Shown here: positions 11,711 through 31,610 of the stretch, piece by piece
Numbering within the stretch: position 1 is the stretch's first letter
Layout: each line of letters starts with the position of its first letter
From: an uncultured Pelagibacteraceae bacterium
GTDB lineage: Bacteria; Pseudomonadota; Alphaproteobacteria; Pelagibacterales; Pelagibacteraceae
Reading direction: 5' to 3'
NCBI GenBank assembly: GCA_902518595.1
Contig: CABYGR010000007.1
Coordinates: forward strand, 1-41,967
Length of the DNA: 41,967 nt
Translations under genes and position numbers: made by a program
The notes under the pieces: generated by a model
Database searches by the model: none
The model's input: the letters and a program-made list of their open reading frames with translations, nothing else
What the model was told of the DNA's origin: nothing

Positions 11711-11734
11711 ATTTATTATTTGTAATTTAGCTTT

Positions 11735-11765
11735 AAAAAAAAGGGGCAATAAATGCCCCTTTTTA
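11735..11765 (-). terminator. Stem-loop with U-rich tail between glpV and glpS (intra-operon)
   Basis: aaaaaaaaggggcaataaatgccccttttt: GGGGCA/TGCCCC stem extended by A/T tracts, immediately downstream of glpV (minus strand). Confidence 0.75.
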
Positions 11766-11784
11766 AATTTAGATTAACCTATGG

Positions 11785-13509
11785 TTATTTCCAAGCGTCT
11801 TTGTATGCTATGGTTTTACCTTGAGGTTTCTCGTTAACTTTAGCTTTTGGCGAACCAGCTTTATTTAACCAAAAAGAAGCTTCTTTTGGTTCATTAAGTC
11901 TTGGTCCACATCCACCGTACGCGTTACTAGCTTTGTCAGCAGCTTCCATACGAGACATAACTAAGTCCATCTCATCTGCAAGACGATCCATAGTTTGTTG
12001 TGGTGTAAATGTACCAGAGTTAACTTCTCCGATATGCTGCCACCATAATTGTGCTAGCTTCGGATAATCTGGAACGTTGATACCTGTTGGTGACCATACA
12101 TTTCTATTGTCTGATCTATAGAACTCAATAAGTCCACCTAATTCAGGTGCTCTCTTTGTGAAGTGTTTGTGGTTAACAGTACTTTTTCTTACGAAAGTTA
12201 AACCAACATCAGCTTTTTTAAGAGATACAGTTTTTGAAACTGCAAATTGAGCGTACAACCATGCAGCTTTTCTTCTCTCAACGTCAGTAGACTTAAACAA
12301 AGTCCATGATCCAACGTCTTGATATCCAAGCTTCATACCTTCTTCCCAATAAGGTCCTTTAGGTGATGGGCCCATTCTCCATAAAGGCATACCGTTTGCA
12401 TCAACTACTTTATTATTAGGATCTTTTCCTACTAAAGAAGCTGTGAAAGCTGTGTACCAGAAAATTTGCTGAGCAACATTTCCTGAAGAAAGAGATGGTA
12501 AAGACTGATAGAAGTCCATAGCTGCTGCTCCCGGAGGCGCATAAGCTCTTAACCATTCATCCCATTTTCTAATTGCGTATACTGCAGCAGGGCCATTAGT
12601 AGCTCCACCTCTTGATACGTTAGCACCAACTGGGTTACAAGAACCTGGTTCCATTCTAATTCCCCACTCATCTACAGGTACTCCATTAGGTAGACCTTTA
12701 CTTCCTGCACCAGCCATTGATAACCACGCATCAGTCATTCTCCAACCTAAGTCAGGAGCTCTTTTACCGTAGTCCATATGACCGTAAATATTAACACCAT
12801 CTATTGTCTTCACATCTTCTGAAAAGAATTTAGCGATGTCTTCGTAAGCAGACCAGTTTAATGGTACACCTAAATCATAACCATATTTAGCTTTAAATTG
12901 TTTTTGAATTTCAGGTCTATCAAACCAGTCTTTTCTGAACCAATAAAGGTTAGCAAATTGTTGGTCTGGTAGTTGATAAAGATTTCCATCTGGACCTGTA
13001 GTAAATTGAAGTCCTATGAAGTCATCTAAATCCAACATTGGATTAGTTACAGCTTTACCTTCACCTTTCATCCAGTCAGTTAAATTTACAGCTTGTTGCA
13101 TACGCGCATGCGTACCAATTAAGTCTGAGTCATTAACATATGCATCGTAAATACTTACATTAGTTTGCATTTGTGTTTGAACAGCCATTACTACATCACC
13201 TTCTCCTATGATTTGGTGTTGTACTTTGATGCCTGTTATTTCTTCAAACGCTTTTGTAAGAGTCTTAGACTCGTACACGTGAGTTGGTATCCCTTCAGAT
13301 ACTACTTTTAAAGTCATTCCTTTGAATGGCTTAGCAGCATCATGAAACCACTTTAGCTCTTTCTCTCTATCTTTAGCAGATAAAGTAGATAGACTAAACT
13401 CACCGTCAGACCATTTCTTAATTGCACCCATATCGGCAAATGCACTAGAAATAGTTACGATTGAAAACGAAACAGCAACAGCAAAAATAGTTTTTAATGT
13501 CTTAATCAT
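11785..13509 (-). CDS. glpV: Glycerol ABC transporter substrate-binding protein (GlpV-type); start trimmed to MIKTLKT
   Basis: About 570 aa with signal peptide MIKTLKTIFAVAVSFSIVTISSAFA; large SBP; followed by two ATPases and two permeases in glpVSTPQU order. Confidence 0.85.
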   Translation of the reverse strand: MIKTLKTIFAVAVSFSIVTISSAFADMGAIKKWSDGEFSLSTLSAKDREKELKWFHDAAKPFKGMTLKVVSEGIPTHVYESKTLTKAFEEITGIKVQHQIIGEGDVVMAVQTQMQTNVSIYDAYVNDSDLIGTHARMQQAVNLTDWMKGEGKAVTNPMLDLDDFIGLQFTTGPDGNLYQLPDQQFANLYWFRKDWFDRPEIQKQFKAKYGYDLGVPLNWSAYEDIAKFFSEDVKTIDGVNIYGHMDYGKRAPDLGWRMTDAWLSMAGAGSKGLPNGVPVDEWGIRMEPGSCNPVGANVSRGGATNGPAAVYAIRKWDEWLRAYAPPGAAAMDFYQSLPSLSSGNVAQQIFWYTAFTASLVGKDPNNKVVDANGMPLWRMGPSPKGPYWEEGMKLGYQDVGSWTLFKSTDVERRKAAWLYAQFAVSKTVSLKKADVGLTFVRKSTVNHKHFTKRAPELGGLIEFYRSDNRNVWSPTGINVPDYPKLAQLWWQHIGEVNSGTFTPQQTMDRLADEMDLVMSRMEAADKASNAYGGCGPRLNEPKEASFWLNKAGSPKAKVNEKPQGKTIAYKDAWK

Positions 13510-13551
13510 TATTTCCCCCATTTTTTGGTTATTGTTTATTTTAGATAATTA

Positions 13552-13580
13552 ATTAAACTCGATCGAAGAATGGATGTCAA
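13552..13580 (-). promoter_or_regulatory. Sigma70-like promoter for the glpV operon
   Basis: Minus strand TTGACA (13580-13575), 17-nt spacer, TTTAAT (13557-13552); about 40 nt upstream of the glpV start. Confidence 0.55.
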
Positions 13581-13626
13581 AAAAAAATTCAATTTGTACG
13601 ACAGTTTTCAATTTCTAATTGAATAA

Positions 13627-15105
13627 TTATGATAATGTTTTTTTAATAGCTTTATCCCACCCAGTTATAAGTTTTTTTCTATTAGACAATTTCATTTTTG
13701 GGTGAAAAGTCCGATCTACTTGCCAATTCTTAGATATATCTTTCAGGGATTTATAAATTCCTATTTGAAGTCCCGCCATAAAAGCTGCTCCTAGCGCTGT
13801 AGTTTCATCTACTGCTGGTCTTAATACTTTAATATTAACGATATCAGCTAAAAATTGTGAAAACCAATTGTTCTTAACCATACCTCCATCTATTTTTATT
13901 ATTTTTGGTTTTAAACCATCATTTTTCATTGCTTCAAATAAATCATGAGTCTGATACGCAACAGACTCTACTGTTGCTCTTACAATTTCTTTAGGTCCAG
14001 TGTCTCTAGTTAAACCTGAGAGAATTCCTCTTGCATTAGCTGCCCAATGAGGGGCACCAAGCCCAGTGAAGGCTGGAACTAGATAAATTCCGTTGTTGGA
14101 TTTTAATGATTTAATTATTTTTTCAGTATCAGATGCTTTTTTAATAATTTTTATTTTATCTCTCAACCATTGCACTCCTGCTCCAGCTATAAAAATAGAT
14201 CCTTCTAATGCATAAGCTGTTTTTCCATTAATTCTGTATCCAATTGTTGTTAACAATCTATTCTTTGAATAAACTTTTTTACTTCCCGTATTTAAAAGAA
14301 CAAAAGCACCTGTGCCATAAGTGCTTTTAAGAGATCCTGGTTCAAAGCAACATTGACCAATAGCAGCTGATTGCTGATCACCCACTATTCCAGTTATTGG
14401 ATAGGACATTCCAGTAAGACTAGGATCAGTGTGTCCAAAATCTGCAGAACAATCTTTAACTGTTGGTAATATCTCTCTAGGTATTTTTAATATCTTTAAT
14501 ATTTGATTGTCCCATTCATTTGAAGAGATATTAAATAACATAGTTCTACTAGCATTCGTTGCATCAGTTGCATGGTCTGCTCCATTAGTTAATTTCCATA
14601 AAAGAAAGCAGTCTACCGTTCCAAATAATAATCTTTTCTTTTTAATTAAATCTTTAGCTTTTGGTATGTTGTCTATAATCCACTTAATCTTTGTAGCTGA
14701 AAAATAAGAATCAATTAACAATCCTGTTTTATTATAAATAATTGTTTCTTTTTTTTGTTTTATTAATTTTTTACAATATTCCGAAGATCTTCTATCTTGC
14801 CAAACTATAGCATTGTAAACAGGTTTGCCTGTTGTTTTGTCCCATAATATTGTTGTTTCTCTCTGATTTGTAATTCCTATTGTTAGAATTTTTCCTTTTA
14901 ATTTTTTACTTTTTTTAATTACATCTCGTAAGACTTTTAATGTAGTCTTCCATATCTCATCTGGATTATGCTCAACCCATCCATCTTGTGGAAAATACTG
15001 AGTAAATTCTATTTGTGATACATAAACTGACTGACCTTTTAAATTGAATAAAATAGCTCTACTTGAAGTAGTTCCCTGGTCGATTGAAATAATAAATTTT
15101 TTCAT
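13627..15105 (-). CDS. glpK: Glycerol kinase
   Basis: 492 aa; IISIDQGTTSSRAILFN, GITNQRETTILWDKTTGKPVYNAIVWQDRR. Confidence 0.97.
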   Translation of the reverse strand: MKKFIISIDQGTTSSRAILFNLKGQSVYVSQIEFTQYFPQDGWVEHNPDEIWKTTLKVLRDVIKKSKKLKGKILTIGITNQRETTILWDKTTGKPVYNAIVWQDRRSSEYCKKLIKQKKETIIYNKTGLLIDSYFSATKIKWIIDNIPKAKDLIKKKRLLFGTVDCFLLWKLTNGADHATDATNASRTMLFNISSNEWDNQILKILKIPREILPTVKDCSADFGHTDPSLTGMSYPITGIVGDQQSAAIGQCCFEPGSLKSTYGTGAFVLLNTGSKKVYSKNRLLTTIGYRINGKTAYALEGSIFIAGAGVQWLRDKIKIIKKASDTEKIIKSLKSNNGIYLVPAFTGLGAPHWAANARGILSGLTRDTGPKEIVRATVESVAYQTHDLFEAMKNDGLKPKIIKIDGGMVKNNWFSQFLADIVNIKVLRPAVDETTALGAAFMAGLQIGIYKSLKDISKNWQVDRTFHPKMKLSNRKKLITGWDKAIKKTLS

Positions 15106-15190: not shown

Positions 15191-16531
15191 ATGACTAAAG
15201 TTGCAATTATCGGGGCTGGACCATGCGGTTTATCTATGTTGAGATCTTTTGAGCAAGCTGAAAAAAAAGGTGAAAAAATACCTCAAGTAGTTTGTTTCGA
15301 AAAACAAGATGATTGGGGAGGCTTATGGAATTACAGCTGGAGAACAGGATCTGATCAGTATGGTGACCCAGTTCCTAACAGCATGTATAGGTATCTTTGG
15401 TCAAACGGTCCTAAGGAATGCTTAGAATTTGCAGATTATTCTTTTGATGAACATTTTAAAAAACCTATTCCATCTTTTCCACCAAGAGAAGTTCTTTATG
15501 ATTACATAATAGGTAGGGTTAGCAAAGGTAATCTTAAAAAAAAAATTAAGTTTAACACAAGAGTTACTAGCGCAATTTTTAGAAACGATAAATTTGAAAT
15601 TAGCTATCAAGATAAAGCTAACAACAAAGTTTTATCTGATAATTTTGATTATCTAATAGTATCTTCGGGTCATTTTTCTGTACCTTTTATTCCTGAGTAC
15701 AAAGGAATGAATTCTTTCCCTGGAAGAATAATGCACTCTCATGATTTTAGAGATGCAGAGGAATTTAGAAATAAAAATGTAGTAGTACTAGGAAGTAGCT
15801 ATTCTGCTGAGGATGTAGCTCTACAATGTAATAAATATGGAGCTAAAAGTGTAACTATAGGATACAGGCATAATCCAATGGGCTTCAAGTGGCCTCAAGG
15901 AATGAAAGAAGTTCATTATCTTGATCGTTTAGAGGGAAAAACTGCTATTTTTAAAGATGGAACTAAGCAAGAAACAGATGTTTTAATTTTATGTACTGGG
16001 TATCTTCATCATTTTCCATTTTTAGATGAAAACCTAAAATTAAAAACACATAACAGATTATATCCACCAAAATTATATAAAGGAGTCGTTTGGCAAGAAA
16101 ATCCTAAATTGCTATATCTTGGAATGCAGGATCAATTTCACACCTTTAACATGTTTGATTGCCAAGCCTGGTATGCAAGAGATGTTATTATGGATAAAAT
16201 TAAGACTCCAAGCGATGATGAAATGGAAAAAGATATTAATAAATGGGTAGCTATGGAAGAAAAACTAGAGAATCCTGATCAAATGATAGATTTCCAGACT
16301 GAGTATACAAAAGAACTTCATGAATTATCAGACTATCCAAATATTGACTTTGAATTAATTAGAAAACATTTTAAAGAGTGGGAGCATCATAAGGTAGAGA
16401 ATATACTTACATATAGAAATAAATCTTTTTCATCGCCAGTAACAGGATCTATTGCACCAATACATCATACTCCATGGGATAAAGCTATGGATGACTCAAT
16501 GAAAACATTTTTAGAACAACCTGCAAAATAA
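15191..16531 (+). CDS. tmm: Trimethylamine monooxygenase (flavin-containing monooxygenase family)
   Basis: 446 aa; VAIIGAGPCGLSMLR, EKQDDWGGLWNYSWRTG, YRYLWSNGPKECLEFADYSF; strongly resembles bacterial Tmm. Confidence 0.9.
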   Translation: MTKVAIIGAGPCGLSMLRSFEQAEKKGEKIPQVVCFEKQDDWGGLWNYSWRTGSDQYGDPVPNSMYRYLWSNGPKECLEFADYSFDEHFKKPIPSFPPREVLYDYIIGRVSKGNLKKKIKFNTRVTSAIFRNDKFEISYQDKANNKVLSDNFDYLIVSSGHFSVPFIPEYKGMNSFPGRIMHSHDFRDAEEFRNKNVVVLGSSYSAEDVALQCNKYGAKSVTIGYRHNPMGFKWPQGMKEVHYLDRLEGKTAIFKDGTKQETDVLILCTGYLHHFPFLDENLKLKTHNRLYPPKLYKGVVWQENPKLLYLGMQDQFHTFNMFDCQAWYARDVIMDKIKTPSDDEMEKDINKWVAMEEKLENPDQMIDFQTEYTKELHELSDYPNIDFELIRKHFKEWEHHKVENILTYRNKSFSSPVTGSIAPIHHTPWDKAMDDSMKTFLEQPAK

Positions 16532-16550
16532 TCTGTGAATAGCAATTTAT

Positions 16551-16925
16551 ATGATATTTGTAAAAAACCTTGAATCCATTTCTGACCAAGAATGGTCTAT
16601 AACTGACAAATATCCTGGGGTTAGATGGAAATTTTTAATAGATGCAGATTTTACAAAAAGTTCTGGACTTTCACTTGGGTTTGCTGAAATTGCTCCTGGT
16701 GGTGACTTAATTCTTCATTATCATTCACCTGCTGAAATATATGTTATTACAGATGGTAAAGGAACCTTAAACAAATCTGGTGAACTTGAGGAAATTAAAA
16801 AAGGTGATGTTGTTTATATAGCTGAAAATGAAAAACATGGATTAAAAAATAATGGAAAAGTGCCTTTAAAATTTTATTGGATTTTTCCTACTGATCGTTT
16901 TTCAGAAGTTGAGTATTTTTATTAA
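16551..16925 (+). CDS. dddK: Small cupin, DMSP lyase DddK-like
   Basis: 124 aa; MIFVKNL...EWS...KYPGVRWKFLIDADF...GLSLGFAEIAPGGDL.LHYHSPAEIYV...FYWIFPTDRFSEVEYF. H56, H58, E62, H96, Y64 and Y122 fall at the positions recalled for SAR11 DddK. Confidence 0.85.
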   Translation: MIFVKNLESISDQEWSITDKYPGVRWKFLIDADFTKSSGLSLGFAEIAPGGDLILHYHSPAEIYVITDGKGTLNKSGELEEIKKGDVVYIAENEKHGLKNNGKVPLKFYWIFPTDRFSEVEYFY

Positions 16926-19075
16926 GCAATACCAAGATGTTTTTTTCTTTTATCAACCCAAGTTCGTATTAAATTGTCAAAAATTAAGCCAATAAACGCT
17001 ACGCAAATACCAAGTGTTAATCCAATACCAGCACCGTTTTTATCTGACAATGCTTTTAGAATATACTGCCCTAAATCTTCTGTTCCTATAAATGCTCCAA
17101 TTATTACCATAAATAAAGCAAATACAATTGTTTGGTTTAAACCGAGCATCATATGAGGAAAAGCCAAAGGAAATTCTATTTTAGTTAATCTTTGAAATTT
17201 ATTTACACCCGACATTGTTGCTGCATCATGCAAAGCAGCGGGAACACTTCTAAGTCCTTCGATAGTATACCTTGTTGCTGGTATCGTGGCATAAACTATA
17301 ACTGCTATTAATACTGATGTATCAGTTATACCAAAGAGCATCATAACTGGAATTAAATAAACGAAAGATGGAAATGTTTGAAAAATATCACAAATACCCA
17401 ACATAAAGCTAGCTGAATGTTTGTTCTGAAAACATAGTGTTCCAACTGTAAATCCTATTGCACATGATACAATTACACCGAAAGTTGCCATATACGTTGT
17501 AACTAAAGCCCTATCCCACCAAGGGCTTAAAGCAATAAATAATGTCAATCCACAAACAACAATAGCCGAACGAATTCCTCCAATTAAATATCCTGCTCCA
17601 ACAACCAGCACTAAAGTAGCTATAGCTGGCATTCTTAGATATAAGGCTCGCATTGGTTGGAGTACTTCTACAATTAACCATGTATTAAATGCTTTTATAT
17701 AAACGAAAAAAGTGTCAAAAATCCAATCAACTCCTCTATTCCAAAAATCGGCTGTGGATATTCCTTTATTGTGCGGAACTTCAAATAAATAATTGTATCC
17801 CTCTTTAAAATAAAAAGATCCAAAATACGCAAGCACAATTCCAATTGCTACAGCAATACCAAAATAGTAAGCATTTTTGTTTCTCTCAAAAAAAGTTAAA
17901 TTTCCAAAATAATCAACTTGCTTATTCGCCCAAGCCAAAGACATTTTATCTAATAATATTGCAATTAAACTAATACATAGACCAGCTTCTAATGCCAGCC
18001 CAATATTAAGCTGATTTAATGCTAATAATAAATTAAATCCTAAACCTTTTGCACCTATAAAGGCTGAGATAACAGCCATAGAAAAACAAACCATAATGAC
18101 TTGGTTTACTCCAATTAATATATCTCTTCTTGCTGTTGGAATTAATACTTTAAACATCAGTTGCCAATTATTACATCCGCTCATCCTGCCTGCTTCAATA
18201 ACTTCTGGTGGCACTGCTCTTAAACCCAGTAATGTTAATAATATCATCGGAGGAACAGCAACAATCATAGTTATAATTACTGCAGCATGATCACCAACTC
18301 CAAAAAGAACGAGTGCAGGAACTAATACAGCATATTGCGGCATTGTCTGCATTACTAATAATATTGGATATAAAGCTTTTTCTACACGCTTATTTTTAAA
18401 TGCTGCAATACCTAAACCTAAACCAAAAATAAATGACAATGGCGCAGCTACTAAAATGAAAGAAAGTGTTTGCATTGAAGGTTTCCATTGACCAAATATG
18501 GAGATATAGACCATAACCAAACCCGCAAATAAAGCGAGACCTTTACCACTCAATTTATAAGCTAATATAGCTGCACCAGCAGCAACTATAGTCCATGGAA
18601 GGCCGGGCATTTTCGCCCAAGAATTAGAGCCTACAAAATCCCAGCTTGTAAAAGCCACAATAGTTTTAAGACCTCCTAATAAAATATCTCTAATTAATTC
18701 AATCAAGAATGTCATGATTGAGGTTACTTCTCTTGTTATCTGAAGAACTAAAGGTCGAGTTTTATATGATTGAGTATCTTCATTCCAAAATTCGATTGGC
18801 AGCCATTCATTCATTAAAAAAAATAATGAATCATTTATCCAGATAGGTAGCCACCCAAGCAATGGGGGCAATCTCCAAAACACATCAAAAGGATAGTATC
18901 TTACTTCTTTGCCCAGAAAAACATAAAAACTTTGATTAGGATCTTTAATAAACTCTGCTTGACCTCGAATAAATTTATATGTTTCTGGAACTTCAATTGC
19001 AAAACATAAGGCAAAAAAAACAACTAATAAAAATAACCATTGAAATGCTTTTGGATATTTTTTTATAAATTCCAT
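16922..19075 (-). CDS. tmoV: Fused double-domain ABC permease, ProW/TmoV type
   Basis: 717 aa; two permease halves, each with an EAA-like loop (PPEVIEAGRMSGCNNWQLMFKVLIP and PAALHDAATMSGVNKFQRLTKIEFP). Confidence 0.8.
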   Translation of the reverse strand: MEFIKKYPKAFQWLFLLVVFFALCFAIEVPETYKFIRGQAEFIKDPNQSFYVFLGKEVRYYPFDVFWRLPPLLGWLPIWINDSLFFLMNEWLPIEFWNEDTQSYKTRPLVLQITREVTSIMTFLIELIRDILLGGLKTIVAFTSWDFVGSNSWAKMPGLPWTIVAAGAAILAYKLSGKGLALFAGLVMVYISIFGQWKPSMQTLSFILVAAPLSFIFGLGLGIAAFKNKRVEKALYPILLVMQTMPQYAVLVPALVLFGVGDHAAVIITMIVAVPPMILLTLLGLRAVPPEVIEAGRMSGCNNWQLMFKVLIPTARRDILIGVNQVIMVCFSMAVISAFIGAKGLGFNLLLALNQLNIGLALEAGLCISLIAILLDKMSLAWANKQVDYFGNLTFFERNKNAYYFGIAVAIGIVLAYFGSFYFKEGYNYLFEVPHNKGISTADFWNRGVDWIFDTFFVYIKAFNTWLIVEVLQPMRALYLRMPAIATLVLVVGAGYLIGGIRSAIVVCGLTLFIALSPWWDRALVTTYMATFGVIVSCAIGFTVGTLCFQNKHSASFMLGICDIFQTFPSFVYLIPVMMLFGITDTSVLIAVIVYATIPATRYTIEGLRSVPAALHDAATMSGVNKFQRLTKIEFPLAFPHMMLGLNQTIVFALFMVIIGAFIGTEDLGQYILKALSDKNGAGIGLTLGICVAFIGLIFDNLIRTWVDKRKKHLGIA

Positions 19076-19078
19076 AAT

Positions 19079-20110
19079 CTAACTATTATTTTTTCTTCCT
19101 CCAAAAACTGTATTAATTATTTTTGTTGGATTAATAGAGCCTACAATGTTATTGTTACTATCTACGACAGTTACTGATTTATCTTGAGAAAGAATTTTTT
19201 CAGCAACATTTTCAATAATATCATCTTTTGAAACTTTTAAATCACTTGTTTCATGAGTATCCGAAGAGTCCATTACATCTTCGATTAATAAAACTTTTTC
19301 TCTAGGTACTTCTTCTGTAAATTTTCTTACATATTCCGTTGCTGGGTTTAAAACAATATTAGCTGGCGTATCCAGCTGTTCGATAATACCATCCTTCATA
19401 ATTGCAATTCGATCAGCGAGTTTTAAAGCTTCATCAAAATCATGTGTTATAAACATAATTGTTTTTTGTAATTTTTCTTGGAGTCTTAAGAACTCATCTT
19501 GCATTTCTTTACGAATTAAAGGGTCTAAGGCTGAAAAAGGTTCATCTAAAAACCATATGTCTGGTTCAACTGCTAACGATCTTGCTATTCCAACTCTTTG
19601 TTGTTGTCCGCCAGATAGCTCTCTCGGGAAGTAGTTTTCTCTTCCTTCGAGCCCCACTAATTTAACCATATCCATTGCCTTGCTAATACTATCTTCAATT
19701 TCTACTCCTTTGATTTGAAGTGGAAAAGCAATATTTTCCAACACAGTTTTGTGAGGCAGCAATGCAAAACTTTGAAAAACCATTCCCATTTTATTTCTTC
19801 TAAGATCTATTAGTTCTTTGTTGTTTAATTGTAATAAATCTTGACCTTCAATAAAAATTTTTCCTCCTGTAGCATCAGTTAATCTAGAAATACATCTCAA
19901 CAATGTTGATTTACCTGAACCAGATAAACCCATCACGACCAACATCTCTCCCTTTGCAACTTCAAAAGAAGCATTGTTAACACCTACAATGCATCCATTT
20001 TCTTGAAAGGTTTTTGCATCAACATTTCCGTTAGAATCTTGAAGCATTTTTTTAGCATTTGCTCCAAAAATTTTAAAAACATTTTCACATTTAATTACTG
20101 AGTTAGACAT
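19079..20110 (-). CDS. tmoW: ABC transporter ATP-binding protein, ProV/TmoW type
   Basis: 343 aa; GLSGSGKSTLLRCISRL, LSGGQQQRVGIARSLA, C-terminal CBS-like region. Confidence 0.82.
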   Translation of the reverse strand: MSNSVIKCENVFKIFGANAKKMLQDSNGNVDAKTFQENGCIVGVNNASFEVAKGEMLVVMGLSGSGKSTLLRCISRLTDATGGKIFIEGQDLLQLNNKELIDLRRNKMGMVFQSFALLPHKTVLENIAFPLQIKGVEIEDSISKAMDMVKLVGLEGRENYFPRELSGGQQQRVGIARSLAVEPDIWFLDEPFSALDPLIRKEMQDEFLRLQEKLQKTIMFITHDFDEALKLADRIAIMKDGIIEQLDTPANIVLNPATEYVRKFTEEVPREKVLLIEDVMDSSDTHETSDLKVSKDDIIENVAEKILSQDKSVTVVDSNNNIVGSINPTKIINTVFGGRKNNS

Positions 20111-21100: not shown

Positions 21101-21132
21101 TTTTCTATCTTACACAAATTGAATAAAAAAAA

Positions 21133-21591: not shown

Positions 21592-21607
21592 GAAATCTGA
21601 ATTAAAA

Positions 21608-21640
21608 AAAATCCCCCCCAACTAGGTTGGGGGAGATTTA
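21608..21640 (-). terminator. Rho-independent terminator downstream of tmoX
   Basis: Minus strand TCCCCCAAC CTA GTTGGGGGGGATTTTTTTT: strong GC stem followed by T tract. Confidence 0.85.
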
Positions 21641-21661: not shown

Positions 21662-22633
21662 TTATTTAGTAAATGGTTTCCAAACTGACTCATTGTCAGC
21701 TAACCACTTTTTGGCAGCATCTTCATGAGTCATTTTGTCAATATCAACTAAAGCAGCCATTGCTCCAATATGACTTGTAGTAAATGACATCTTTTTGAAA
21801 GCTGCAGCTGCACCTGGATGTGTTTGTGGAAAGTCCTCGTGTACTGCTTTCTTCAGATAACCATCTGGAGAACCGCATTTACCATCTCCACCATCTTCTG
21901 GTCTGCAACCTGCTGTGTAAGGAGGAAAGTCAATAAATGTAAAACCAGCACCATCTGTAAAGTTTGGTGTCCAGTTAAAAATAATAGTTCCTCTTCCTTC
22001 TTTTTCAGCTGCTGCTAATTCAGCCCAAAGTGCATCAGCACTTCCAGCAAATTTAACCATCCAAAGATCACCTAATCCAAGAGCATCTACTCTTTGAGGA
22101 ATTAAGTCACCATGCCAAGTTTGTGGACCTTCTAACATACGTCCTTTTCCACCTGAGTCAGGTGTTACAAAGTTTTTAGCACAGTCTGGATTTTTTAAAG
22201 CTGTCCAGTCTGGTAGACCTGGGCATAATCCTTTGTCAGCAACCCAATTTGGATAACCCATATCCTCAAGAGTTCTTGCTTCATGATCACCCCAATCTAA
22301 TAAACCACCTTTATCCAAAGCAGTCGTAAATGATTTACCAAACGCAGATTCCCAAACCTCGTGAGAGATTGTTACATCTCCTATTCTAATTGACTCGTAA
22401 ACAGCTTGTGAGTCAGCATTAACATAACTCACGTTATTTCCCATACTTTCAAAAATTCCACCAATAACGTAAGCCATTACAATTTGGCTTGACCAGTTAT
22501 GTGTTGGAATTACTATAGGTTGGCTACTGTCGCCAGATTTTTTTGCAGTTTTATCTCCTCCACCCATGAAGAAAACAAGGCCCGCAATAACAATAATCGC
22601 ACCGATAATTAACGGTAAAGATTTGTTTTTCAT
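21662..22633 (-). CDS. tmoX: Glycine betaine/TMAO-type ABC substrate-binding protein (TmoX-like)
   Basis: 323 aa; N-terminal TM/signal, QPIVIPTHNWSSQIVMAYVIGGIFESMG, HEVWESAFG OpuAC/ProX fold; locus context tmm/tdm. Confidence 0.78.
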   Translation of the reverse strand: MKNKSLPLIIGAIIVIAGLVFFMGGGDKTAKKSGDSSQPIVIPTHNWSSQIVMAYVIGGIFESMGNNVSYVNADSQAVYESIRIGDVTISHEVWESAFGKSFTTALDKGGLLDWGDHEARTLEDMGYPNWVADKGLCPGLPDWTALKNPDCAKNFVTPDSGGKGRMLEGPQTWHGDLIPQRVDALGLGDLWMVKFAGSADALWAELAAAEKEGRGTIIFNWTPNFTDGAGFTFIDFPPYTAGCRPEDGGDGKCGSPDGYLKKAVHEDFPQTHPGAAAAFKKMSFTTSHIGAMAALVDIDKMTHEDAAKKWLADNESVWKPFTK

Positions 22634-22732: not shown

Positions 22733-25072
22733 ATGCCGCTAACTACTTTAGATATTAAGGAACCAGGCTTAAATGTATTACCACCTGGAGTTGAAAGATA
22801 TATTGTTGAAGGTGGTGGTTTAACTGGAGTTCAAATTTTACCAGATGATGAAATAGAAATTATCAATAATGAGGGTAATCAAATTTGTGAAATTTCTGTA
22901 TTCAATAAAGATGGTAAATCTGAATTGCCTATTTTGGGCTTAAAGGAAATCAAAGACAATTCAGAAATAAAAAAAATTCTTTTTAAAAAAGATGAAACAT
23001 CATTGCAGGCTTTGCTCCAACTTAAAAAAAGAAACTTAAATATAGAAAAATCAAAATCATCTTTAATTTTCAATAGAGAAACAAAAGCTGGCGAGAGCAT
23101 AAAATTAAAATCAAAAGATAAATGTTATTGTATTTTTGCAGCTCCAAGCAATGAAATGATGATTTCTGAACAAAATCCATCAACTGAACTTACAGTATTG
23201 GTTAAAAGGTCTATTGTGAAAGAGGATAAAGAGTTTTCTGTGATCCCAGATCCAGTTTACGATCCCTCTAATGAAATTAACATTGCTAAAACTACTGCTA
23301 ACTCTTACCAAGTTAAAGAGGGTGATTATATTCAAATAATTACACCTACTGGAAGACAATGCTCAGATTTTGTAGCTTATGACACGTCTAAATTAGATAA
23401 AGGAAAAGAAAATGGATTAGACTGGCAAACCACAAGAACTTTTATGGGGCATACTTTCCCAGGACCAGGATTATTTTCAAAATTTTATGATATGGATCAT
23501 GAGCCACTTGTTGAGGTAGTTAGAGATACAGTCGGTATTCATGACACATTTAACTTAGCGTGTACTTCAAAATATTACGAAGATGCAGGATATTTTGGTC
23601 ATGCAAACTGTTCTGATAATTTAAACGAGGTTATGGAAAAATATGGTGTCCAAAAAAAAAGAGGGTGGCATGCTATTAACTTATTTTTTAATACATCTGC
23701 AGGTGGTCAAAACTCTGTGTTATCAGATGAATCTTTTGCAAGACCTGGTGATTATGTCATTTTTAAAGCACTTAAAGATTTAACTTGTGGTACTACTGCT
23801 TGTCCAAGTGATATTGATAGCTGTAATGGATGGAATCCAACTGATATATTTGTTAGAACATATGACAAAAAAAAAGAATTTACTAAGTCATTTGCTTTTA
23901 GAATGAAAACTGACTCTGAAAAGAAACTTACTAGAAATACAGGCTTCTACGAAAGAACATCAAAATTAACTAGAAACTTTGTTGATGCTAGAGGATTTTG
24001 GTTGCCAAACGATTATACAAAACATGGTGTAATCAATGAATATACTGCATGCAGAGAAAAAGCTGTTGTAATAGATCTATCATCATTAAGAAAATTTGAA
24101 ATTTTAGGACCTGATGCAGAAGAGTTAATGAACTATACATTAACAAGAAATATTAAAAAACTTTCTGTTGGCCAAGTAGTTTACTCTGCAATGTGTTATG
24201 AAAATGGTACAATGTTTGATGACGGAACATTATTAAGATTGAGTGAAACTGGATTTAGATGGATTTGTGGAGATGAATATGCTGGAGAATGGTTAAAAGA
24301 ACAAGCAAAAAAGAAAAATTTAAAAGTAGTAATCAAAAATTCAACTGACCAAATTAATAATATTTCTGTACAGGGTCCAAATAGTAGAAAAATTTTAGAA
24401 AAAATTATTTTTACACCACCAACTCAACCAACAATTTCTGAATTGCAGTGGTTTAGATTTACAATTTGTAGATTAGAGGAATTAAATGGAATTCCTTTAA
24501 TTGTATCAAGAACGGGTTATACAGGTGAGCTAGGTTATGAAGTTTGGTGCCATCCAAATCATGCTTCTCAAGTTTGGGACAGGGTTATGGAAGCAGGTAA
24601 AAATGATGGTTTAATACCAGCAGGTTTTGGTGCTTTAGACTTATTAAGAATTGAAGCAGGGTTGGTTTTATTTGGTAATGAATTTGATGGACAACAAGAT
24701 CCTTTTGAGGCAGGTATTGGATTTGCAGTACCTCTAAAAACAAAGACTGATGATTTCGTTGGTAAAGAAAATTTAATTAAAAGAAAAGAAAATCCTCAAA
24801 AAAAATTAGTTGGTTTAGAACTAATTGGTAAAGAAAAAGCTAATCATGGAGATTGTGTTCATATTGGAAGAGCACAAGTTGGTATAATAACAAGTGCATG
24901 CTTATCCCCTACTCTTGGAAAAAATATTGCTTTATGTAGAATTGATGTTGGTCATTCTGAAGAAGGCACTGAAATTGAAATTGGAAAAATTGATGGACAT
25001 CAAAAAAGAATTCCAGCTAAAATAGTTGGTTTTCCTCACTATGACCCTCAAAAAACTCGTGTAAAATCCTGA
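22733..25072 (+). CDS. tdm: TMAO demethylase (Tdm): DUF1989-like N-terminal domain fused to GcvT/tetrahydrofolate-binding domain
   Basis: 779 aa; TPTGRQCSDFVAYD, DLTCGTTACPSDIDSCNGWNPTDIFVR cysteine-rich motif, C-terminal GcvT domain; adjacent to tmoX and tmm. Confidence 0.88.
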   Translation: MPLTTLDIKEPGLNVLPPGVERYIVEGGGLTGVQILPDDEIEIINNEGNQICEISVFNKDGKSELPILGLKEIKDNSEIKKILFKKDETSLQALLQLKKRNLNIEKSKSSLIFNRETKAGESIKLKSKDKCYCIFAAPSNEMMISEQNPSTELTVLVKRSIVKEDKEFSVIPDPVYDPSNEINIAKTTANSYQVKEGDYIQIITPTGRQCSDFVAYDTSKLDKGKENGLDWQTTRTFMGHTFPGPGLFSKFYDMDHEPLVEVVRDTVGIHDTFNLACTSKYYEDAGYFGHANCSDNLNEVMEKYGVQKKRGWHAINLFFNTSAGGQNSVLSDESFARPGDYVIFKALKDLTCGTTACPSDIDSCNGWNPTDIFVRTYDKKKEFTKSFAFRMKTDSEKKLTRNTGFYERTSKLTRNFVDARGFWLPNDYTKHGVINEYTACREKAVVIDLSSLRKFEILGPDAEELMNYTLTRNIKKLSVGQVVYSAMCYENGTMFDDGTLLRLSETGFRWICGDEYAGEWLKEQAKKKNLKVVIKNSTDQINNISVQGPNSRKILEKIIFTPPTQPTISELQWFRFTICRLEELNGIPLIVSRTGYTGELGYEVWCHPNHASQVWDRVMEAGKNDGLIPAGFGALDLLRIEAGLVLFGNEFDGQQDPFEAGIGFAVPLKTKTDDFVGKENLIKRKENPQKKLVGLELIGKEKANHGDCVHIGRAQVGIITSACLSPTLGKNIALCRIDVGHSEEGTEIEIGKIDGHQKRIPAKIVGFPHYDPQKTRVKS

Positions 25073-25513: not shown

Positions 25514-26839
25514 ATGTCATTGCCAACAAAAGCAAAAGTAGTAATTATTGGTGGGGGGATTCATGGCTTAAGCACTGCTTGGAAACTTTCAGAAACATAT
25601 AAAAACCCAGGAGACATAGTTGTTTTAGAAAAAGATGACACAGCAGCAGGTGCAAGTGGGATTGCATGTGGAGTTGTCAGAAATAATTATTTTCAACCTG
25701 CTATGAGAGAATTAATGGCACATTCAGTTTCAGTTTGGGAAAGCGATCCAAAAGCTTGGAAATATAATGCTGTAGGATATCTTCAAATATCTCCTGAAGT
25801 AATGCATGAAGATGTTGCATCAATTTACGAGCAACAAAAAGCTATCGGCTACGAGTCAGAATTTATAGAGGGTGAAAAAGACTGTACCAAATATATGAAG
25901 GGTATGTTTGATGACTGGCAAGCTAAAGGAATAACATCTGTACTTCACGAGAAAAAAGGTGGTTATGCATTTAATAAAGATTCAGTCAAAGCTCTTGAAA
26001 AAAAATCAGTAACTAACGGAGTTAATGTTATTAAAGGAGTTAAAGTTACTGGATTTAAAAGAGGCAGTAACAGTAAGGCTGTGACAGGTGTTGAAACAAA
26101 TAAAGGAAAAATAGATTGTGATCAAATTGTTGTTGGAGCAGGTCCATGGGTAAGAGATTTTTGGAATATGTTAGAACTTCCAAAAACTGCGTGGATCAAG
26201 GATGAAGATGGAAGATTCCATGAAACTGATATGTGGAAATATTGGATGCTGCAAGAAGGAATAATTGGAGTAGAGCCAGATTTTTTAAAAACTAACGATG
26301 GTAAACAACCGCCTGTGGTTCATGTAGATTCTACTGCGCCTTTATATTCTGATACAACAAAGAAATTAATAACAGAGAAAATCTGGGGTATTTATTATAA
26401 ACCTGATATTGAGGGTTTAGGTGTTCAAGGTGGAACATCTCCTTACATAGTTGATAAACACTTTGACAAAGTCAATGTAGATCCTTATGGAATAAAATCG
26501 CAAGAATACCAAACTACTGAGGCATTTAATGAAATGTGGTGTTCTGCTTTAGCTCATTGTCAAAAAAGATTTGAAGGTAAATCTCACTTATACAGAAAAG
26601 GACCTTCAGGAGGACTTGGGTGCATGACTCCAGACTCTTTCCCAATCTTTGATAGATTTTTAGAAAATGTTTATATGATAGCAGATGCTAACCATGGATA
26701 TAAAATGATTGGCGTTGGTGAACTTGTAGCAAAAGAAATTCTTGGAACTGAAAGTGATTTATTAAAACCGTTTAGATTCAACCGTTACGAGAAAGGTGAA
26801 CTTCACCCTACTTCGAACAGTCCATTCCCTTGGAGTTAA
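25514..26839 (+). CDS. FAD-dependent DAO-family amine oxidoreductase (SoxB/PuuB-like), substrate unassigned
   Basis: 441 aa; VVIIGGGIHGLSTAWKLSE, VVLEKDDTAAGASGIACGVVRNNYF. Confidence 0.85.
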   Translation: MSLPTKAKVVIIGGGIHGLSTAWKLSETYKNPGDIVVLEKDDTAAGASGIACGVVRNNYFQPAMRELMAHSVSVWESDPKAWKYNAVGYLQISPEVMHEDVASIYEQQKAIGYESEFIEGEKDCTKYMKGMFDDWQAKGITSVLHEKKGGYAFNKDSVKALEKKSVTNGVNVIKGVKVTGFKRGSNSKAVTGVETNKGKIDCDQIVVGAGPWVRDFWNMLELPKTAWIKDEDGRFHETDMWKYWMLQEGIIGVEPDFLKTNDGKQPPVVHVDSTAPLYSDTTKKLITEKIWGIYYKPDIEGLGVQGGTSPYIVDKHFDKVNVDPYGIKSQEYQTTEAFNEMWCSALAHCQKRFEGKSHLYRKGPSGGLGCMTPDSFPIFDRFLENVYMIADANHGYKMIGVGELVAKEILGTESDLLKPFRFNRYEKGELHPTSNSPFPWS

Positions 26840-26910
26840 ACTTCAAGCCTAGACACAAATAAATTTTTCAGCTACGTTTAAATAAAATTATAATACTTTA
26901 AGGGGAAAAA

Positions 26911-28380
26911 ATGACTGATCTAGAAAAACACGTTAACCAACCGGGAAGAGATAAGTTAATAAAACAAGTTAGATCTAAAATTAATGAGCTTGGGATAGAT
27001 TATATTTTTTTTCAATTTATATCTGTCACAGGAAGAGTTGTTGGTAAAGGAATTCCAGCTGATCACTGGGAAAGAACATGTGAAAAAGGTTTTCAATTAG
27101 TTTATGGCGCAACTGCAAATTTGTTCTTAGATCGTCACAATAATTATATTGGATATGGACCTGAAGCCAAAGAACTTGTAGGTATCCCAGATCCTGAAAC
27201 TTTCTGTCAATTACCTTGGGATAAAAAGGTAGCTAGAGTTTTTGTAACTTGTTTTAGAAATAGAGAAGAAAGAGAAAACCCAGGTGGTCACTTAACATCA
27301 GATTGTAGAGGTAATTTAAGAATTATTGCTAAAGAATTTAAGAAAAAACATGGTTATCAATTAAGAGTAGGAACAGAGCCAGAAATGATGTGGCTAACTA
27401 GAAATCAAGATGGTACTCCAACTGGTAAGGGTTTTTCTAAGCCATATTGTTATCACATAGATCAATTTGAATCTTTAAGACCAGTTTTTATGAAGGTTAT
27501 GGAGTATGCTAGAGCAATGGGATTTGACATGATCCAGGGTGATCATGAAGATGCTCCAGGTCAATTAGAATTAAACTGGATGTATGATGATGTACTAAGA
27601 AATGCAGACAGATTATCAACTTATAGGCAAATTTGTGCTCAAGTAGCAAGAGAATTCAATTTAATTGCATGCTTTATGACAAAACCATTTATGGGTGTTT
27701 CAGCAAGTGGTTGTCATACTAATATGTCTTTATGGACAGGTGGAAAAGATAAAATTAATAAATTAGGTCATAAATCCCTTCCAGGAATGGATGAAGTTTT
27801 CAGTTATGTAGAAGGTGGAACAAATACTTTCATGCCTGATACTAAAGACGTTCAACTACCAGGTAAAATTGGATTAAAATCTATTGGTGGTGTAATGAAA
27901 CATCTTCCAGCACTAACTGCTATTGGGTCTTCTACAGTAAATTCTTATAGAAGATTATGGGATCAGGGTTTCTGGGCACCTGTTTATGCTGACTGGGGAT
28001 ATCAAAACAGAACTTGTGGATTAAGAGTTTCCGCTCCAGGTAGATTTGAATACCGTTCAGTTGACTCTATGCACAATCCATATTTAATGGGTGCGTCTTT
28101 ATTAAAAGCTTTTGATGATGGATTAACAAATAATATAGATCCGGGCAAACCTGAATCGAGAAATATTTATGAAGCTCAAAAAGCAGGAAAAACTGTTAAA
28201 AAATTACCTTTAAGTCTTGGTGAAGCATTAGACAGACTAGCAGAAGATAAAGTTATTCAGTCTGCAATGCCTGATGAAATGTACAAAATATTTCATTGGT
28301 ATAAAAATGATGAATGGGAAAGATTTTTAGGTGCAACAACTCAATGGGATCTGGATACTTATCTTGATTGTCTTCCATAG
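26911..28380 (+). CDS. Glutamine synthetase-like glutamate-amine ligase (second GS-like paralog, substrate unassigned)
   Basis: 489 aa; GS catalytic-domain motifs MIQGDHEDAPGQLELNW, SGCHTNMSLW, NSYRRLWDQGFWAP; longer and clearly distinct from the 34044 ORF. Confidence 0.85.
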   Translation: MTDLEKHVNQPGRDKLIKQVRSKINELGIDYIFFQFISVTGRVVGKGIPADHWERTCEKGFQLVYGATANLFLDRHNNYIGYGPEAKELVGIPDPETFCQLPWDKKVARVFVTCFRNREERENPGGHLTSDCRGNLRIIAKEFKKKHGYQLRVGTEPEMMWLTRNQDGTPTGKGFSKPYCYHIDQFESLRPVFMKVMEYARAMGFDMIQGDHEDAPGQLELNWMYDDVLRNADRLSTYRQICAQVAREFNLIACFMTKPFMGVSASGCHTNMSLWTGGKDKINKLGHKSLPGMDEVFSYVEGGTNTFMPDTKDVQLPGKIGLKSIGGVMKHLPALTAIGSSTVNSYRRLWDQGFWAPVYADWGYQNRTCGLRVSAPGRFEYRSVDSMHNPYLMGASLLKAFDDGLTNNIDPGKPESRNIYEAQKAGKTVKKLPLSLGEALDRLAEDKVIQSAMPDEMYKIFHWYKNDEWERFLGATTQWDLDTYLDCLP

Positions 28381-28411
28381 GTAACAATTAAAAAAAGAAA
28401 GAGTAAATTTT

Positions 28412-29356
28412 ATGTGCGGAATTGCTGGTTTAATTCATAGAGGCAGATCCTCTAATGTTGGAAGTGAACTTCAAGGAATGCTTCAAGCATTAAAGCATAG
28501 AGGTGAAGATTCAACTGGTTATGCTTTGTATGGTGATACTGATGGCAAAAACTTTATAATGCGTTTTAAAGTTGGAGAAAATGTTGGTGAGGGTAGTTCA
28601 TCAATCATGGAAGATGTTTCCGTTTACGATGAAAGAAAAAAAATAGTTGATCAAACTCTTAGTGAAATGGGTGCAAAAATAGTTAAAGAAGAAAGAGTTC
28701 TCCCCTATTCATTAAGATATGAAATAGATTATGATACAAAAGACTTACTAGAATTTTCACAAAAAATTGAAAGTATTCCAGGTGTAGAAATCTTATCTAT
28801 GGGTAAATCTTTAGAAGTAATAAAAGATCTTGGAAATGCAAAAATGGTATGTGACAGATACAATTTAGATAAACTTGTTGGGACACATGCTATTGGTCAT
28901 GCAAGAATGGCTACTGAGTCAGGTGTGGATATTAAATCTGCTCATCCTTTCTGGGGATATCCTTTTAGCGATGTATCAGTTGTTCATAATGGACAATTAA
29001 CTAATTATTGGAATAATAGAAGAGTTTTAGAGAATAAAGGAATGCGATTTATGTCAGAATGCGACTCTGAACTTATTGCAGTTTACATTGCACAAAAAAT
29101 GAGAGAAGGAGCAAGTCTTGAAGAAGGTATGAAAGAGTCTTTGACAGGTCTTGATGGTGTATTTACATATTTTGTTGCAACAAAAGATTCTTTAGGAATG
29201 GCTAAAGATACAATGGCAGCAAAACCTTTGGTTTTATATGAGTCAGATGATTTAGTGGCTATGGGCTCTGAAGAAATAGCAATTAGATCAGTTTTGCCTC
29301 AAGAAATTGACACTTATGACCCATTTGATGGGGAGGTTAAAGTATGGCAAATCTAA
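28412..29356 (+). CDS. mgsA: Glutamine amidotransferase class II domain, N-methylglutamate synthase subunit A-like (GlxB)
   Basis: MCGIAGLIHRG N-terminal nucleophile Cys; HAIGHARMATESGVDIKSAHPFWG. Confidence 0.85.
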   Translation: MCGIAGLIHRGRSSNVGSELQGMLQALKHRGEDSTGYALYGDTDGKNFIMRFKVGENVGEGSSSIMEDVSVYDERKKIVDQTLSEMGAKIVKEERVLPYSLRYEIDYDTKDLLEFSQKIESIPGVEILSMGKSLEVIKDLGNAKMVCDRYNLDKLVGTHAIGHARMATESGVDIKSAHPFWGYPFSDVSVVHNGQLTNYWNNRRVLENKGMRFMSECDSELIAVYIAQKMREGASLEEGMKESLTGLDGVFTYFVATKDSLGMAKDTMAAKPLVLYESDDLVAMGSEEIAIRSVLPQEIDTYDPFDGEVKVWQI

Positions 29357-30198
29357 AAACAAATGAAAAGAAATCTAAAGCCCAATCAATGGGTATGCAT
29401 ACTGAAGTTCTTACAGGAAGAACTCAACAAAAATTTTTTAATCCTGATGAAGCGGAGAATTTTTATTATTTTGGAACGTACGATGTTGATTTTAATAAAA
29501 GAACAGACTTAGATGTTAAAGATATGACAGCTCCAGAAGCTAATAAAGAAATAGATAATTTAATGAGTCAAGGGTATGGCACAATTGTTATTAAAAATCC
29601 TCAAGGAAAACATAGTTTAGGTGTTGGAATTTTAAACAAGCTAAACCTGATTTTTGAGGGAAGTTTAGGATATTTTGGAATGGGTTCTTGTGATGGGCCT
29701 ATAGTTAGAATTAACGGAAGAGTCGGATGGTCATGTGCAGAAAACTTAATGGCTGGAAAAGTAGTTATAGAAAAAAATGCTGGCTCATGTTTTGGTGCTG
29801 CTATTAGAGGTGGAGATTTAATCTGCAAAGGTAGTGTTGGTGCAAGAACTGGTATTGATATGAAAGGTGGAACCATCATTATTGGTGGAGATGCTGGAGC
29901 TTTTACTGGTTTCATGATGCAAAGAGGTAGAATAATTATTCTAGGAGATGTGGGAATAAATTTAGGTGATTCTATGTATGATGGGACAATTTTCGTAGGT
30001 GGAGAAATTGGATCTTATGGTAGTGATGCAGTTGATGCAGAATTAACATCAAATGACCAAAATTGGTTAAAAAGAAAATTAAAGGTAGCAGAAATTGGTG
30101 AAAATTTTGATGTAAGTAAAATGAAAAAAATTGTAGCTGGTAAAAAACTATGGAATTATGATAATTTAGAACCTACAGAGAAGAAGGGAGCAATTTAA
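29344..30198 (+). CDS. mgsB: GltB C-terminal GXGXG-type domain, N-methylglutamate synthase subunit B-like (GlxC)
   Basis: 284 aa; repeated glycine-rich beta-helix (VRINGRVGWSCAENLMAGKVVIEKNAGSCFGAAIRGGDLICKG...). Confidence 0.85.
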   Translation: MANLKTNEKKSKAQSMGMHTEVLTGRTQQKFFNPDEAENFYYFGTYDVDFNKRTDLDVKDMTAPEANKEIDNLMSQGYGTIVIKNPQGKHSLGVGILNKLNLIFEGSLGYFGMGSCDGPIVRINGRVGWSCAENLMAGKVVIEKNAGSCFGAAIRGGDLICKGSVGARTGIDMKGGTIIIGGDAGAFTGFMMQRGRIIILGDVGINLGDSMYDGTIFVGGEIGSYGSDAVDAELTSNDQNWLKRKLKVAEIGENFDVSKMKKIVAGKKLWNYDNLEPTEKKGAI

Positions 30199-31610
30199 TG
30201 CCTAAGAAAAAAAATAAAAAAATCAAAAATAATGGAAAAGGTGTTGGTGGAAAAGCTGATGTTCATGCACATGAAGAAGGTAAAAGAAATAAAAGTTTAC
30301 TAGGTCATAATGCTATTTTTACTCCTGAAGTAATAGACGATATTCATATTAAATCTCAACTTGGAAGATATAGAATGCGTGGAATGGCATTGATGAAAAA
30401 AATTCCAACATTTGATGATTTGGTTTTTTTACCAGGAACATTAACTAGATTTGTAATTGAAGGTTACAGGGAAAAATGTGAAACAAAAACTGTAATTGGT
30501 CCAAGATGTGAAAACCCGATTGAATTAGATATACCTGTTTATATTACAGGAATGAGCTTTGGTGCCCTTTCTTATGAGGCAAAAACTGCTCTAGCGAGAG
30601 GGGCTACTATGGCAGGGAGTGCAACTTGTTCTGGAGAAGGTGGAATGATACCTGATGAAAGAAGATATTCAGAAAAATGGTATTATCAATGTATTCAATC
30701 TAGATATGGATTTAACCCACATCATGCACAACTTGCAGATGGAATTGAAGTATTTATTGGACAAGGACAAAAAGTTGGGATGGGTGGACACTTAATGGGC
30801 CAAAAAGTAACTGATCAAGTTGCTGAAATGAGATCTCTACCATCGGGTATTGATCAAAGATCACCAGCTAGACACCCTGACTGGTTAGGTCCAGATGATT
30901 TAGCTCTTAAAGTTGAGGAGTTAAGACAATTAACAAAAAATAAAGTTCCAATTCAATTAAAACTTGGAGCTTCAAAAGTTTATGACGATGTACGTATGGC
31001 TGCAAAATGTGATCCTGACTCTATCTATCTAGATGGAATGGAAGGTTCTACTGGAGCTGGACCTCACATTGCTGCTGCAAATACTGGAATTCCAGGTATT
31101 GCTGCAATTAGAGAAGCTAGAAGAGCAATTGATGATGTTGGTAAAACTGGAAAAGTCACATTAATTTATGCAGGTGGCGTTAGAGATGGTGCAGATATGG
31201 CTAAAGCATTAGCATTAGGTGCTGATGCTATTGCAATAGGTACTGGTTCAATGATTGCTTTAAACTGTAATAAAGATATTCCAGAGGCAAATTTTGAAAA
31301 AGAAATGGGAGTAAAAGCTGGTGAATGTTACCACTGTCATACTGGAAGATGTCCAGTTGGTGTTGCAACTCAAGATCCAAAATTAAGAGCAAGATTGAAT
31401 CCTGATGATGCTGCGTTAAGAGTATATAATTATCTACATTCTATGACTTTAGAAGCTCAACTTTTAGCAAGAGCTTGTGGTAAAACTAATATCCATTCTT
31501 TAGAACCTGAAGATTTAGCTGCTTTAACGTCTGAAGCGTCTGCTTTAGCTAAAGTACCTTTGGCTGGAACTAATTATACAGTTGGTGTGGATAACTTTCA
31601 TAAAATATAG
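30198..31610 (+). CDS. mgsC: FMN-dependent glutamate synthase domain, N-methylglutamate synthase subunit C-like (GlxD)
   Basis: 470 aa; GMSFGALSYEAKTALARGA, GECYHCHTGRCPVGVATQDP iron-sulfur motif. Confidence 0.88.
   Translation: MPKKKNKKIKNNGKGVGGKADVHAHEEGKRNKSLLGHNAIFTPEVIDDIHIKSQLGRYRMRGMALMKKIPTFDDLVFLPGTLTRFVIEGYREKCETKTVIGPRCENPIELDIPVYITGMSFGALSYEAKTALARGATMAGSATCSGEGGMIPDERRYSEKWYYQCIQSRYGFNPHHAQLADGIEVFIGQGQKVGMGGHLMGQKVTDQVAEMRSLPSGIDQRSPARHPDWLGPDDLALKVEELRQLTKNKVPIQLKLGASKVYDDVRMAAKCDPDSIYLDGMEGSTGAGPHIAAANTGIPGIAAIREARRAIDDVGKTGKVTLIYAGGVRDGADMAKALALGADAIAIGTGSMIALNCNKDIPEANFEKEMGVKAGECYHCHTGRCPVGVATQDPKLRARLNPDDAALRVYNYLHSMTLEAQLLARACGKTNIHSLEPEDLAALTSEASALAKVPLAGTNYTVGVDNFHKI

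What the first reader, a model, noticed from the sequence alone, without database searches (positions are those of the whole stretch)
16551..16925. DddK-type DMSP lyase embedded in the TMA oxidation locus directly after tmm
The 124-aa cupin matches remembered SAR11 DddK sequence over most of its length, with His56/His58/Glu62/His96 metal ligands and Tyr64/Tyr122 at the same numbering. It is 19 nt downstream of tmm on the same strand. Linking DMSP cleavage to TMA oxidation suggests a shared methylated-osmolyte response; Tmm-type enzymes are also reported to oxidise DMS, the DddK product, to DMSO.
Basis: partly seen in the sequence, partly recalled or inferred. Interest (0 to 1): 0.8.

Follow-up and report, generated by a model that had tools for sequence, protein, structure and literature searches.

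The report
DMSP-cleaving enzyme behind tmm in SAR11
A SAR11 ocean bacterium carries an almost certainly working gene for DddK, the enzyme that turns the algal osmolyte DMSP into the climate gas DMS, directly behind the gene for an enzyme that can oxidise DMS; the pair recurs in many SAR11 genomes, but dddK comes and goes at this spot and sits elsewhere in many relatives.

Summary
Observation confirmed. Window 16551-16925(+) encodes a 124-aa DddK: 102/123 residues identical to crystallised Pelagibacter DddK, phmmer E about 1e-66. Metal ligands, both catalytic tyrosines and the aromatic substrate cage are invariant in 44 distinct SAR11 copies; dN/dS is about 0.1. It lies 19 nt behind an intact tmm, 87% identical to Tmm7211, which oxidises DMS in vitro.

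The pair is not a quirk of one contig. In 25 of 25 distinct loci with both genes the spacer is 18-20 nt, including cultured strain HTCC9565. But it is not the rule. dddK occupies six chromosomal sites in SAR11, including a fabI-pnp site in a genome that appears to be HTCC1062, and most tmm genes lack it. On the Tmm tree, linkage changes at least 4-6 times. One locus keeps only a 3' dddK remnant; another keeps dddK beside a tmm tail.

Verdict: a genuine DddK, a new member of a known kind, in an apparently undescribed accessory tmm-dddK transcription unit. DMSP to DMS to DMSO is plausible and testable but unproven. A shared osmolyte response is not shown: dddK usually lands in convergent gene junctions, which forces co-orientation with one neighbour.

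The parts
16551..16925 (+). dddK, DMSP (and probably DMSOP) lyase, cupin, 124 aa
   Evidence: phmmer to PDB DddK E about 1e-66; 102/123 residues identical; active site invariant in 44/44 copies
15191..16531 (+). tmm, trimethylamine monooxygenase (FMO), 446 aa, first gene of the putative unit
   Evidence: NF058570 739.9 bits, cut-off 675; 87% identical to Tmm7211, PDB 7d4k
16532..16550 (+). 19-nt tmm-dddK spacer; no room for a promoter, no terminator-like site
   Evidence: sequence; 18-20 nt in 25/25 homologous loci; scan
16922..19075 (-). tmoW-like permease, convergent with dddK; ORFs overlap by 4 nt
   Evidence: choline/ProW permease family hits; coordinates
19079..20110 (-). tmoV-like ATP-binding subunit
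   Evidence: ProV subfamily TIGR01186, over cut-off
21662..22633 (-). tmoX-like TMAO-binding protein
   Evidence: PDB 4xz6 E 2.7e-85, against 1.1e-5 for 7yle
22733..25072 (+). tdm, TMAO demethylase
   Evidence: NF053776, 1128 bits, cut-off 1100
25514..31610 (+). downstream methylamine block: sarcosine-oxidase-like, glutamine-synthetase-like (gmaS-type) and glutamate-synthase-domain (mgs-type) genes
   Evidence: the ORF listing; NCBIfam hits below cut-off; gmaS/mgs assignment is inference from gene order

Best explanation
This is a bona fide SAR11 DddK, the second gene of a short tmm-dddK transcription unit. The metal-bound cupin (His56/His58/Glu62/His96, Tyr64 base, Tyr122 carboxylate anchor) cleaves intracellular DMSP to DMS plus acrylate and, by analogy with HTCC1062 DddK, DMSOP to DMSO plus acrylate. 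Acrylate can go on through an AcuI-type reductase found in the same genome. Because the lyase is made from the tmm message, some of the DMS is likely to meet Tmm and be oxidised to DMSO when Tmm is expressed. Shown here: gene identity, residue conservation, purifying selection, fixed spacing, recurrence in many genomes. Inferred: activity, co-transcription, flux to DMSO. The linkage is an accessory arrangement in some SAR11 lineages, repeatedly gained or lost, not a conserved requirement.
For: DddK identity. The aromatic cage of the DddK-DMSOP complex (Tyr21, Trp26, Phe108, Trp110, Phe117; PMC10686828) is invariant in 44 SAR11 copies. Median dN/dS is 0.097 among 27 tmm-site copies. Spacer is 18-20 nt in 25/25 loci, with no promoter- or terminator-like site between the genes. 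The pair stays together in L015, L021 and L023, where dddK is followed by dehydrogenase genes instead of tmoW. Tmm is 87% identical to Tmm7211 with Asp314 kept; Tmm7211 oxidises DMS in vitro (PMC8498191). The same genome carries DmdA (3tfh, E 1e-87) and an AcuI/YhdH-type reductase.
Against: No activity or expression data for this protein. HTCC1062 DddK has a very high Km for DMSP (82 mM; PMC5395565), though intracellular DMSP can reach 180 mM in HTCC1062 (PMC10030565). dddK is not linked to tmm in many SAR11 genomes, including the likely HTCC1062. DMS would compete with TMA for Tmm.
Confidence: 0.75

Rival explanations
1. True DddK, but its position behind tmm is incidental: dddK is an accessory gene that inserts or recombines mostly at convergent gene junctions, and the tmm-tmoW junction is one of several tolerated sites. 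It cleaves DMSP/DMSOP independently of Tmm.
For: Six sites in SAR11, at each of which the gene downstream of dddK is convergent (three rearranged site-A loci excepted). dddK changes 6 times on the Tmm tree and one clade is rejected, p-AU 3e-6. L106 keeps only a 3' dddK remnant between tmm and tmoW. L017 keeps intact dddK beside a Tmm-like tail. Only 2 of 82 tmm-positive genomes in an even family sample have dddK behind tmm.
Against: The pair stays together in L015, L021 and L023 when tmoW is no longer next to it. Spacer length is fixed at 18-20 nt while its sequence diverges. 14 of 26 dddK-positive genomes in an even genus sample use this one site.
Confidence: 0.55
2. A functional two-gene module: DddK feeds DMS to Tmm, which traps it as non-volatile DMSO that SAR11 can reuse as a sulfur source.
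For: Tmm7211 oxidises DMS, and the same paper proposes DMS channelling from co-occurrence of Tmm and DMSP lyases (PMC8498191). HTCC1062 uses DMSO as sulfur source (PMC10686828). Pair retained with fixed spacing.
Against: Linkage is patchy and reversible. DMS oxidation by Tmm is reported as methylated-amine-dependent in Roseobacters (cited in PMC8498191). No flux data.
Confidence: 0.3
3. The lyase here mainly acts on an N-analogue of DMSP (such as beta-alanine betaine), releasing TMA plus acrylate as substrate for Tmm, or runs the reverse (aza-Michael) reaction with dimethylamine.
For: HTCC1062 DddK adds dimethylamine and other amines to acrylate in vitro (PMC12582016); very high Km for DMSP; the neighbouring pathway handles TMA and dimethylamine.
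Against: Active site and cage do not differ between tmm-linked and unlinked copies. The aza-Michael work is synthetic biocatalysis. No paper in the library holds both terms 'alanine betaine' and 'DMSP lyase'.
Confidence: 0.04
4. A cupin of the same superfamily without DMSP lyase activity.
For: General Cupin_2 hit; Pfam DMSP_lyase model below its cut-off. Related cupins at 38-42% identity in other Alphaproteobacteria share the metal ligands and both tyrosines.
Against: 83% identity to the crystallised DddK with identical active site and cage. The Pfam DMSP_lyase hit is a partial, sub-threshold match and was not used as a test of DddK membership.
Confidence: 0.03

Closest known systems
DddK of Candidatus Pelagibacter ubique HTCC1062 (SAR11_0394; PDB 5tfz, 6a53-6a55, 8hlf)
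   Same: 102 of 123 aligned residues; all metal ligands, Tyr64, Tyr122, aromatic cage; same length apart from the C-terminal tail
   Different: C-terminus 6 residues shorter. The gene lies behind tmm, whereas in the genome with the identical DddK (probably HTCC1062) it lies between fabI and an FkbM-type gene/pnp, with tmm more than 400 kb away
Tmm of Pelagibacter sp. HTCC7211 (PDB 7d4k)
   Same: 87% identical; Asp314 kept; family cut-off passed
   Different: Whether HTCC7211 carries dddK behind tmm was not determined here
dddD/dddX clusters with DMSP transporter genes in other DMSP degraders
   Same: A DMSP lyase gene near transporter genes
   Different: The neighbouring transporter here is TmoX-like (TMAO), and it is convergent, not in the same unit

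Membership tests
DddK DMSP lyase | Close sequence relationship to characterised DddK | tested here: met
   phmmer E about 1e-66; 83% identity over 123 residues; next non-DddK PDB hit E about 1e-7
DddK DMSP lyase | Metal ligands His56, His58, Glu62, His96 | tested here: met
   Present and invariant in 44/44 SAR11 copies; also present in distant cupins, so not specific
DddK DMSP lyase | Catalytic Tyr64 and Tyr122 | tested here: met
   Present and invariant; likewise not specific to DddK
DddK DMSP lyase | Aromatic cage Tyr21, Trp26, Phe108, Trp110, Phe117 | tested here: met
   All five invariant in 44/44; none of seven distant Alphaproteobacterial homologues was seen to keep all five
DddK DMSP lyase | Cleaves DMSP to DMS plus acrylate | not testable with these tools
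   Needs an enzyme assay
Tmm (trimethylamine monooxygenase) | Curated family score over cut-off | tested here: met
   NF058570 739.9 bits, cut-off 675
Tmm (trimethylamine monooxygenase) | Oxidises TMA and DMS | not testable with these tools
   Shown for the 87% identical Tmm7211 (PMC8498191)
tmm-dddK operon | Co-directional, short spacer, no intervening promoter or terminator | tested here: met
   19 nt here; 18-20 nt in 25/25 loci
tmm-dddK operon | Co-transcription | not testable with these tools
   Needs RT-PCR or RNA-seq, for example in HTCC9565
tmm-dddK operon | Conserved linkage across dddK-bearing lineages | tested here: not met
   Repeated gain/loss and five other dddK sites

The most novel reading that the evidence does not exclude
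In some SAR11 lineages tmm and dddK form a dedicated, co-expressed DMSP-to-DMSO module: DddK makes DMS and acrylate, Tmm traps the DMS as DMSO before it escapes, and the cell keeps carbon and sulfur. These lineages would emit less DMS per DMSP than SAR11 with unlinked dddK, and DMSP cleavage would follow methylamine availability.
Probability: 0.28. Interest if true: 0.75.

Novelty: new member of a known kind. Interest (0 to 1): 0.48.

Why it matters
SAR11 are among the most abundant cells in the surface ocean, and whether their DMSP cleavage vents DMS or retains it as DMSO affects marine sulfur budgets. Co-occurrence of Tmm with DMSP lyases had already suggested channelling (PMC8498191). A physical tmm-dddK unit, present in the cultured strain HTCC9565 and absent in the apparent HTCC1062 genome, gives a natural pair of strains in which the idea can be tested directly. 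The movement of dddK among gene junctions is also a clear example of accessory gene turnover in a streamlined genome.

Tried and rejected
Viral carriage: a scan of IMG/VR with peptides of the window protein found no relative. Promoter between tmm and dddK: none found, no space. dddK remnants in tmm-tmoW gaps of other genomes: found only in L106; longer gaps in several others hold a small minus-strand ORF instead. Single clade of tmm-linked dddK on the Tmm tree: rejected; an earlier Tmm tree showed a clean split only because its tmm-only rows were the 30 nearest relatives. On the DddK tree a single clade of site-A copies is not rejected (p-AU 0.35), so the copies at this site may share one origin with later losses or recombination. 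Mantel correlation of DddK with Tmm distances (0.48) is only modestly above DddK with TmoW (0.35), so it was not used as proof of co-inheritance. The genome-contig scan used peptides of the window protein and over-represents close copies; the even samples were used for frequencies. Sun et al. 2016, the original DddK paper, is not held. No structure prediction was run because an 83% identical crystal structure exists.

Full report
Observation. The ORF at 16551-16925(+) is real: 124 aa, ATG to TAA, 19 nt behind the stop codon of tmm, with the last 4 nt overlapping the end of a convergent permease gene. It matches the solved Pelagibacter DddK with E about 1e-66, collinear over residues 1-123; 102 of these are identical. 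The 21 differences do not touch metal ligands, catalytic tyrosines or the aromatic cage.

Surroundings. tmm passes the curated Tmm cut-off and is 87% identical to Tmm7211. Downstream and convergent are a ProW-type permease, a ProV-type ATPase and a binding protein that matches PDB 4xz6 (TmoX, by my knowledge; the table gives only a generic name) at 2.7e-85 and 7yle only at 1.1e-5. Then comes TMAO demethylase over its cut-off, followed by sarcosine-oxidase-like, glutamine-synthetase-like and glutamate-synthase-like genes in the order of a methylamine block (assignment by gene order is inference). So dddK does lie inside a TMA/TMAO locus. The genome is a 57% complete assembly, so absences in it mean nothing. 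It does hold DmdA and an AcuI/YhdH-type reductase.

How general is the arrangement? I collected 44 distinct dddK coding sequences, nearly all from SAR11 loci. They lie at six sites: A, tmm-dddK-tmoW (27 sequences); B, fabI-dddK-pnp (4); C, beside a CBS-domain gene (2); D, beside an EgtD-like gene, in some genomes directly behind TRAP transporter genes (9); E, beside yajQ (1); F, one MAG contig (1), which may be misbinned. Of the 27 site-A sequences, 25 have tmm upstream, one (L025) starts at a contig edge and one (L017) has only a Tmm-like tail. In the 25 the spacer is 18-20 nt although its sequence varies. Cultured strain HTCC9565 is one of them (L028).

Frequencies. In an even sample of 399 genomes of the genus, 26 carry dddK and 14 of these have it at site A (12 with tmm seen, 2 at contig edges with tmoW downstream). 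In an even sample of 297 genomes of the family, 82 carry tmm and 8 carry dddK, 2 of them behind tmm. Many genomes are incomplete, so these are lower bounds.

Function and selection. His56, His58, Glu62, His96, Tyr64, Tyr122 and the cage Tyr21, Trp26, Phe108, Trp110, Phe117 described for the DddK-DMSOP complex (PMC10686828) are invariant in all 44. Median pairwise dN/dS among site-A copies is 0.097. More distant Alphaproteobacterial cupins at 38-42% identity share ligands and tyrosines, but none was seen to keep the whole cage, so the cage, not the ligands, separates DddK from its relatives.

History. On a Tmm tree of 59 rows, presence of dddK behind tmm needs 6 changes (well-supported branches force 4), and a single clade is rejected (p-AU 3e-6). 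In L106, whose Tmm is sister to that of a dddK-bearing locus, the tmm-tmoW gap holds a decayed stretch matching the last 40-60 nt of dddK (E about 2e-9): dddK was lost there. In L017 the reverse is seen: dddK intact, only a Tmm-like tail left. In L015, L021 and L023 tmm and dddK stay together, but dddK is followed by an aldehyde dehydrogenase gene (in L021 also a hydroxyacid-dehydrogenase-like gene) rather than tmoW. The genes are thus separable, yet the pair can outlast a change of neighbours.

What the linkage means. At all six sites the gene downstream of dddK is convergent (three rearranged site-A loci excepted). A gene placed in a convergent junction must share direction with one neighbour, so co-direction with tmm alone is weak evidence for coupling. 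Fixed spacing, absence of a promoter or terminator and retention of the pair argue that it is transcribed with tmm. Purified SAR11 Tmm oxidises DMS to DMSO, and the authors proposed channelling from co-occurrence (PMC8498191). HTCC1062 DddK is more efficient on DMSOP than DMSP, and HTCC1062 uses DMSO as a sulfur source (PMC10686828). So a DMSP-to-DMSO route is plausible; it is not shown.

Literature. Papers that hold dddK, tmm and SAR11 together and further searches gave no description of a tmm-dddK gene pair in the passages I read. The library lacks most subscription papers, so this is not proof of novelty. The DmpXWV paper states that its DMSP transporter genes are not co-located with known DMSP catabolic genes (PMC10030565).

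Verdict. Enzyme identity: near certain. Co-transcription: likely. Shared methylated-osmolyte response: not shown. Overall a new member of a known family in an accessory, recurrent and testable arrangement.

Noticed in passing
L107, L105, L111, L112, L113, L114, L115, L024: gap between tmm (or dddK) and tmoW: A conserved minus-strand ORF of about 50-58 codons, hydrophobic (MNTKIINIIGWVLFLISSIGFIMSS...FWAMFGS...FLIPYF), sits between tmm (dddK in L024) and tmoW; absent from the window. Possible small membrane protein.
   Followed up: partly
L040, L041, L091: In some SAR11, dddK directly follows TRAP transporter genes (dctM, dctQ), about 11 nt apart in L041; whether that transporter imports DMSP or DMSOP is unknown.
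   Followed up: no
L021:6431-8824; L015:6486-7226; L023:6282-7712: tmm-dddK followed on the same strand by an aldehyde dehydrogenase gene and, in L021, a 3-hydroxyisobutyrate-dehydrogenase-like gene; could serve acrylate/3-hydroxypropionate breakdown.
   Followed up: partly
L017:5594-5974: A 126-codon Tmm-like tail, 49% identical to the window Tmm, remains upstream of intact dddK.
   Followed up: partly
window 7573-15105: A glycerol-type ABC transporter, binding protein and glpK lie between gpsA and tmm; the block is missing in L015, where gpsA lies next to tmm.
   Followed up: no
window 20172-21621: Three small genes, one with MORN-like repeats, sit between tmoV and tmoX and are kept in most site-A loci; function unknown.
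   Followed up: no
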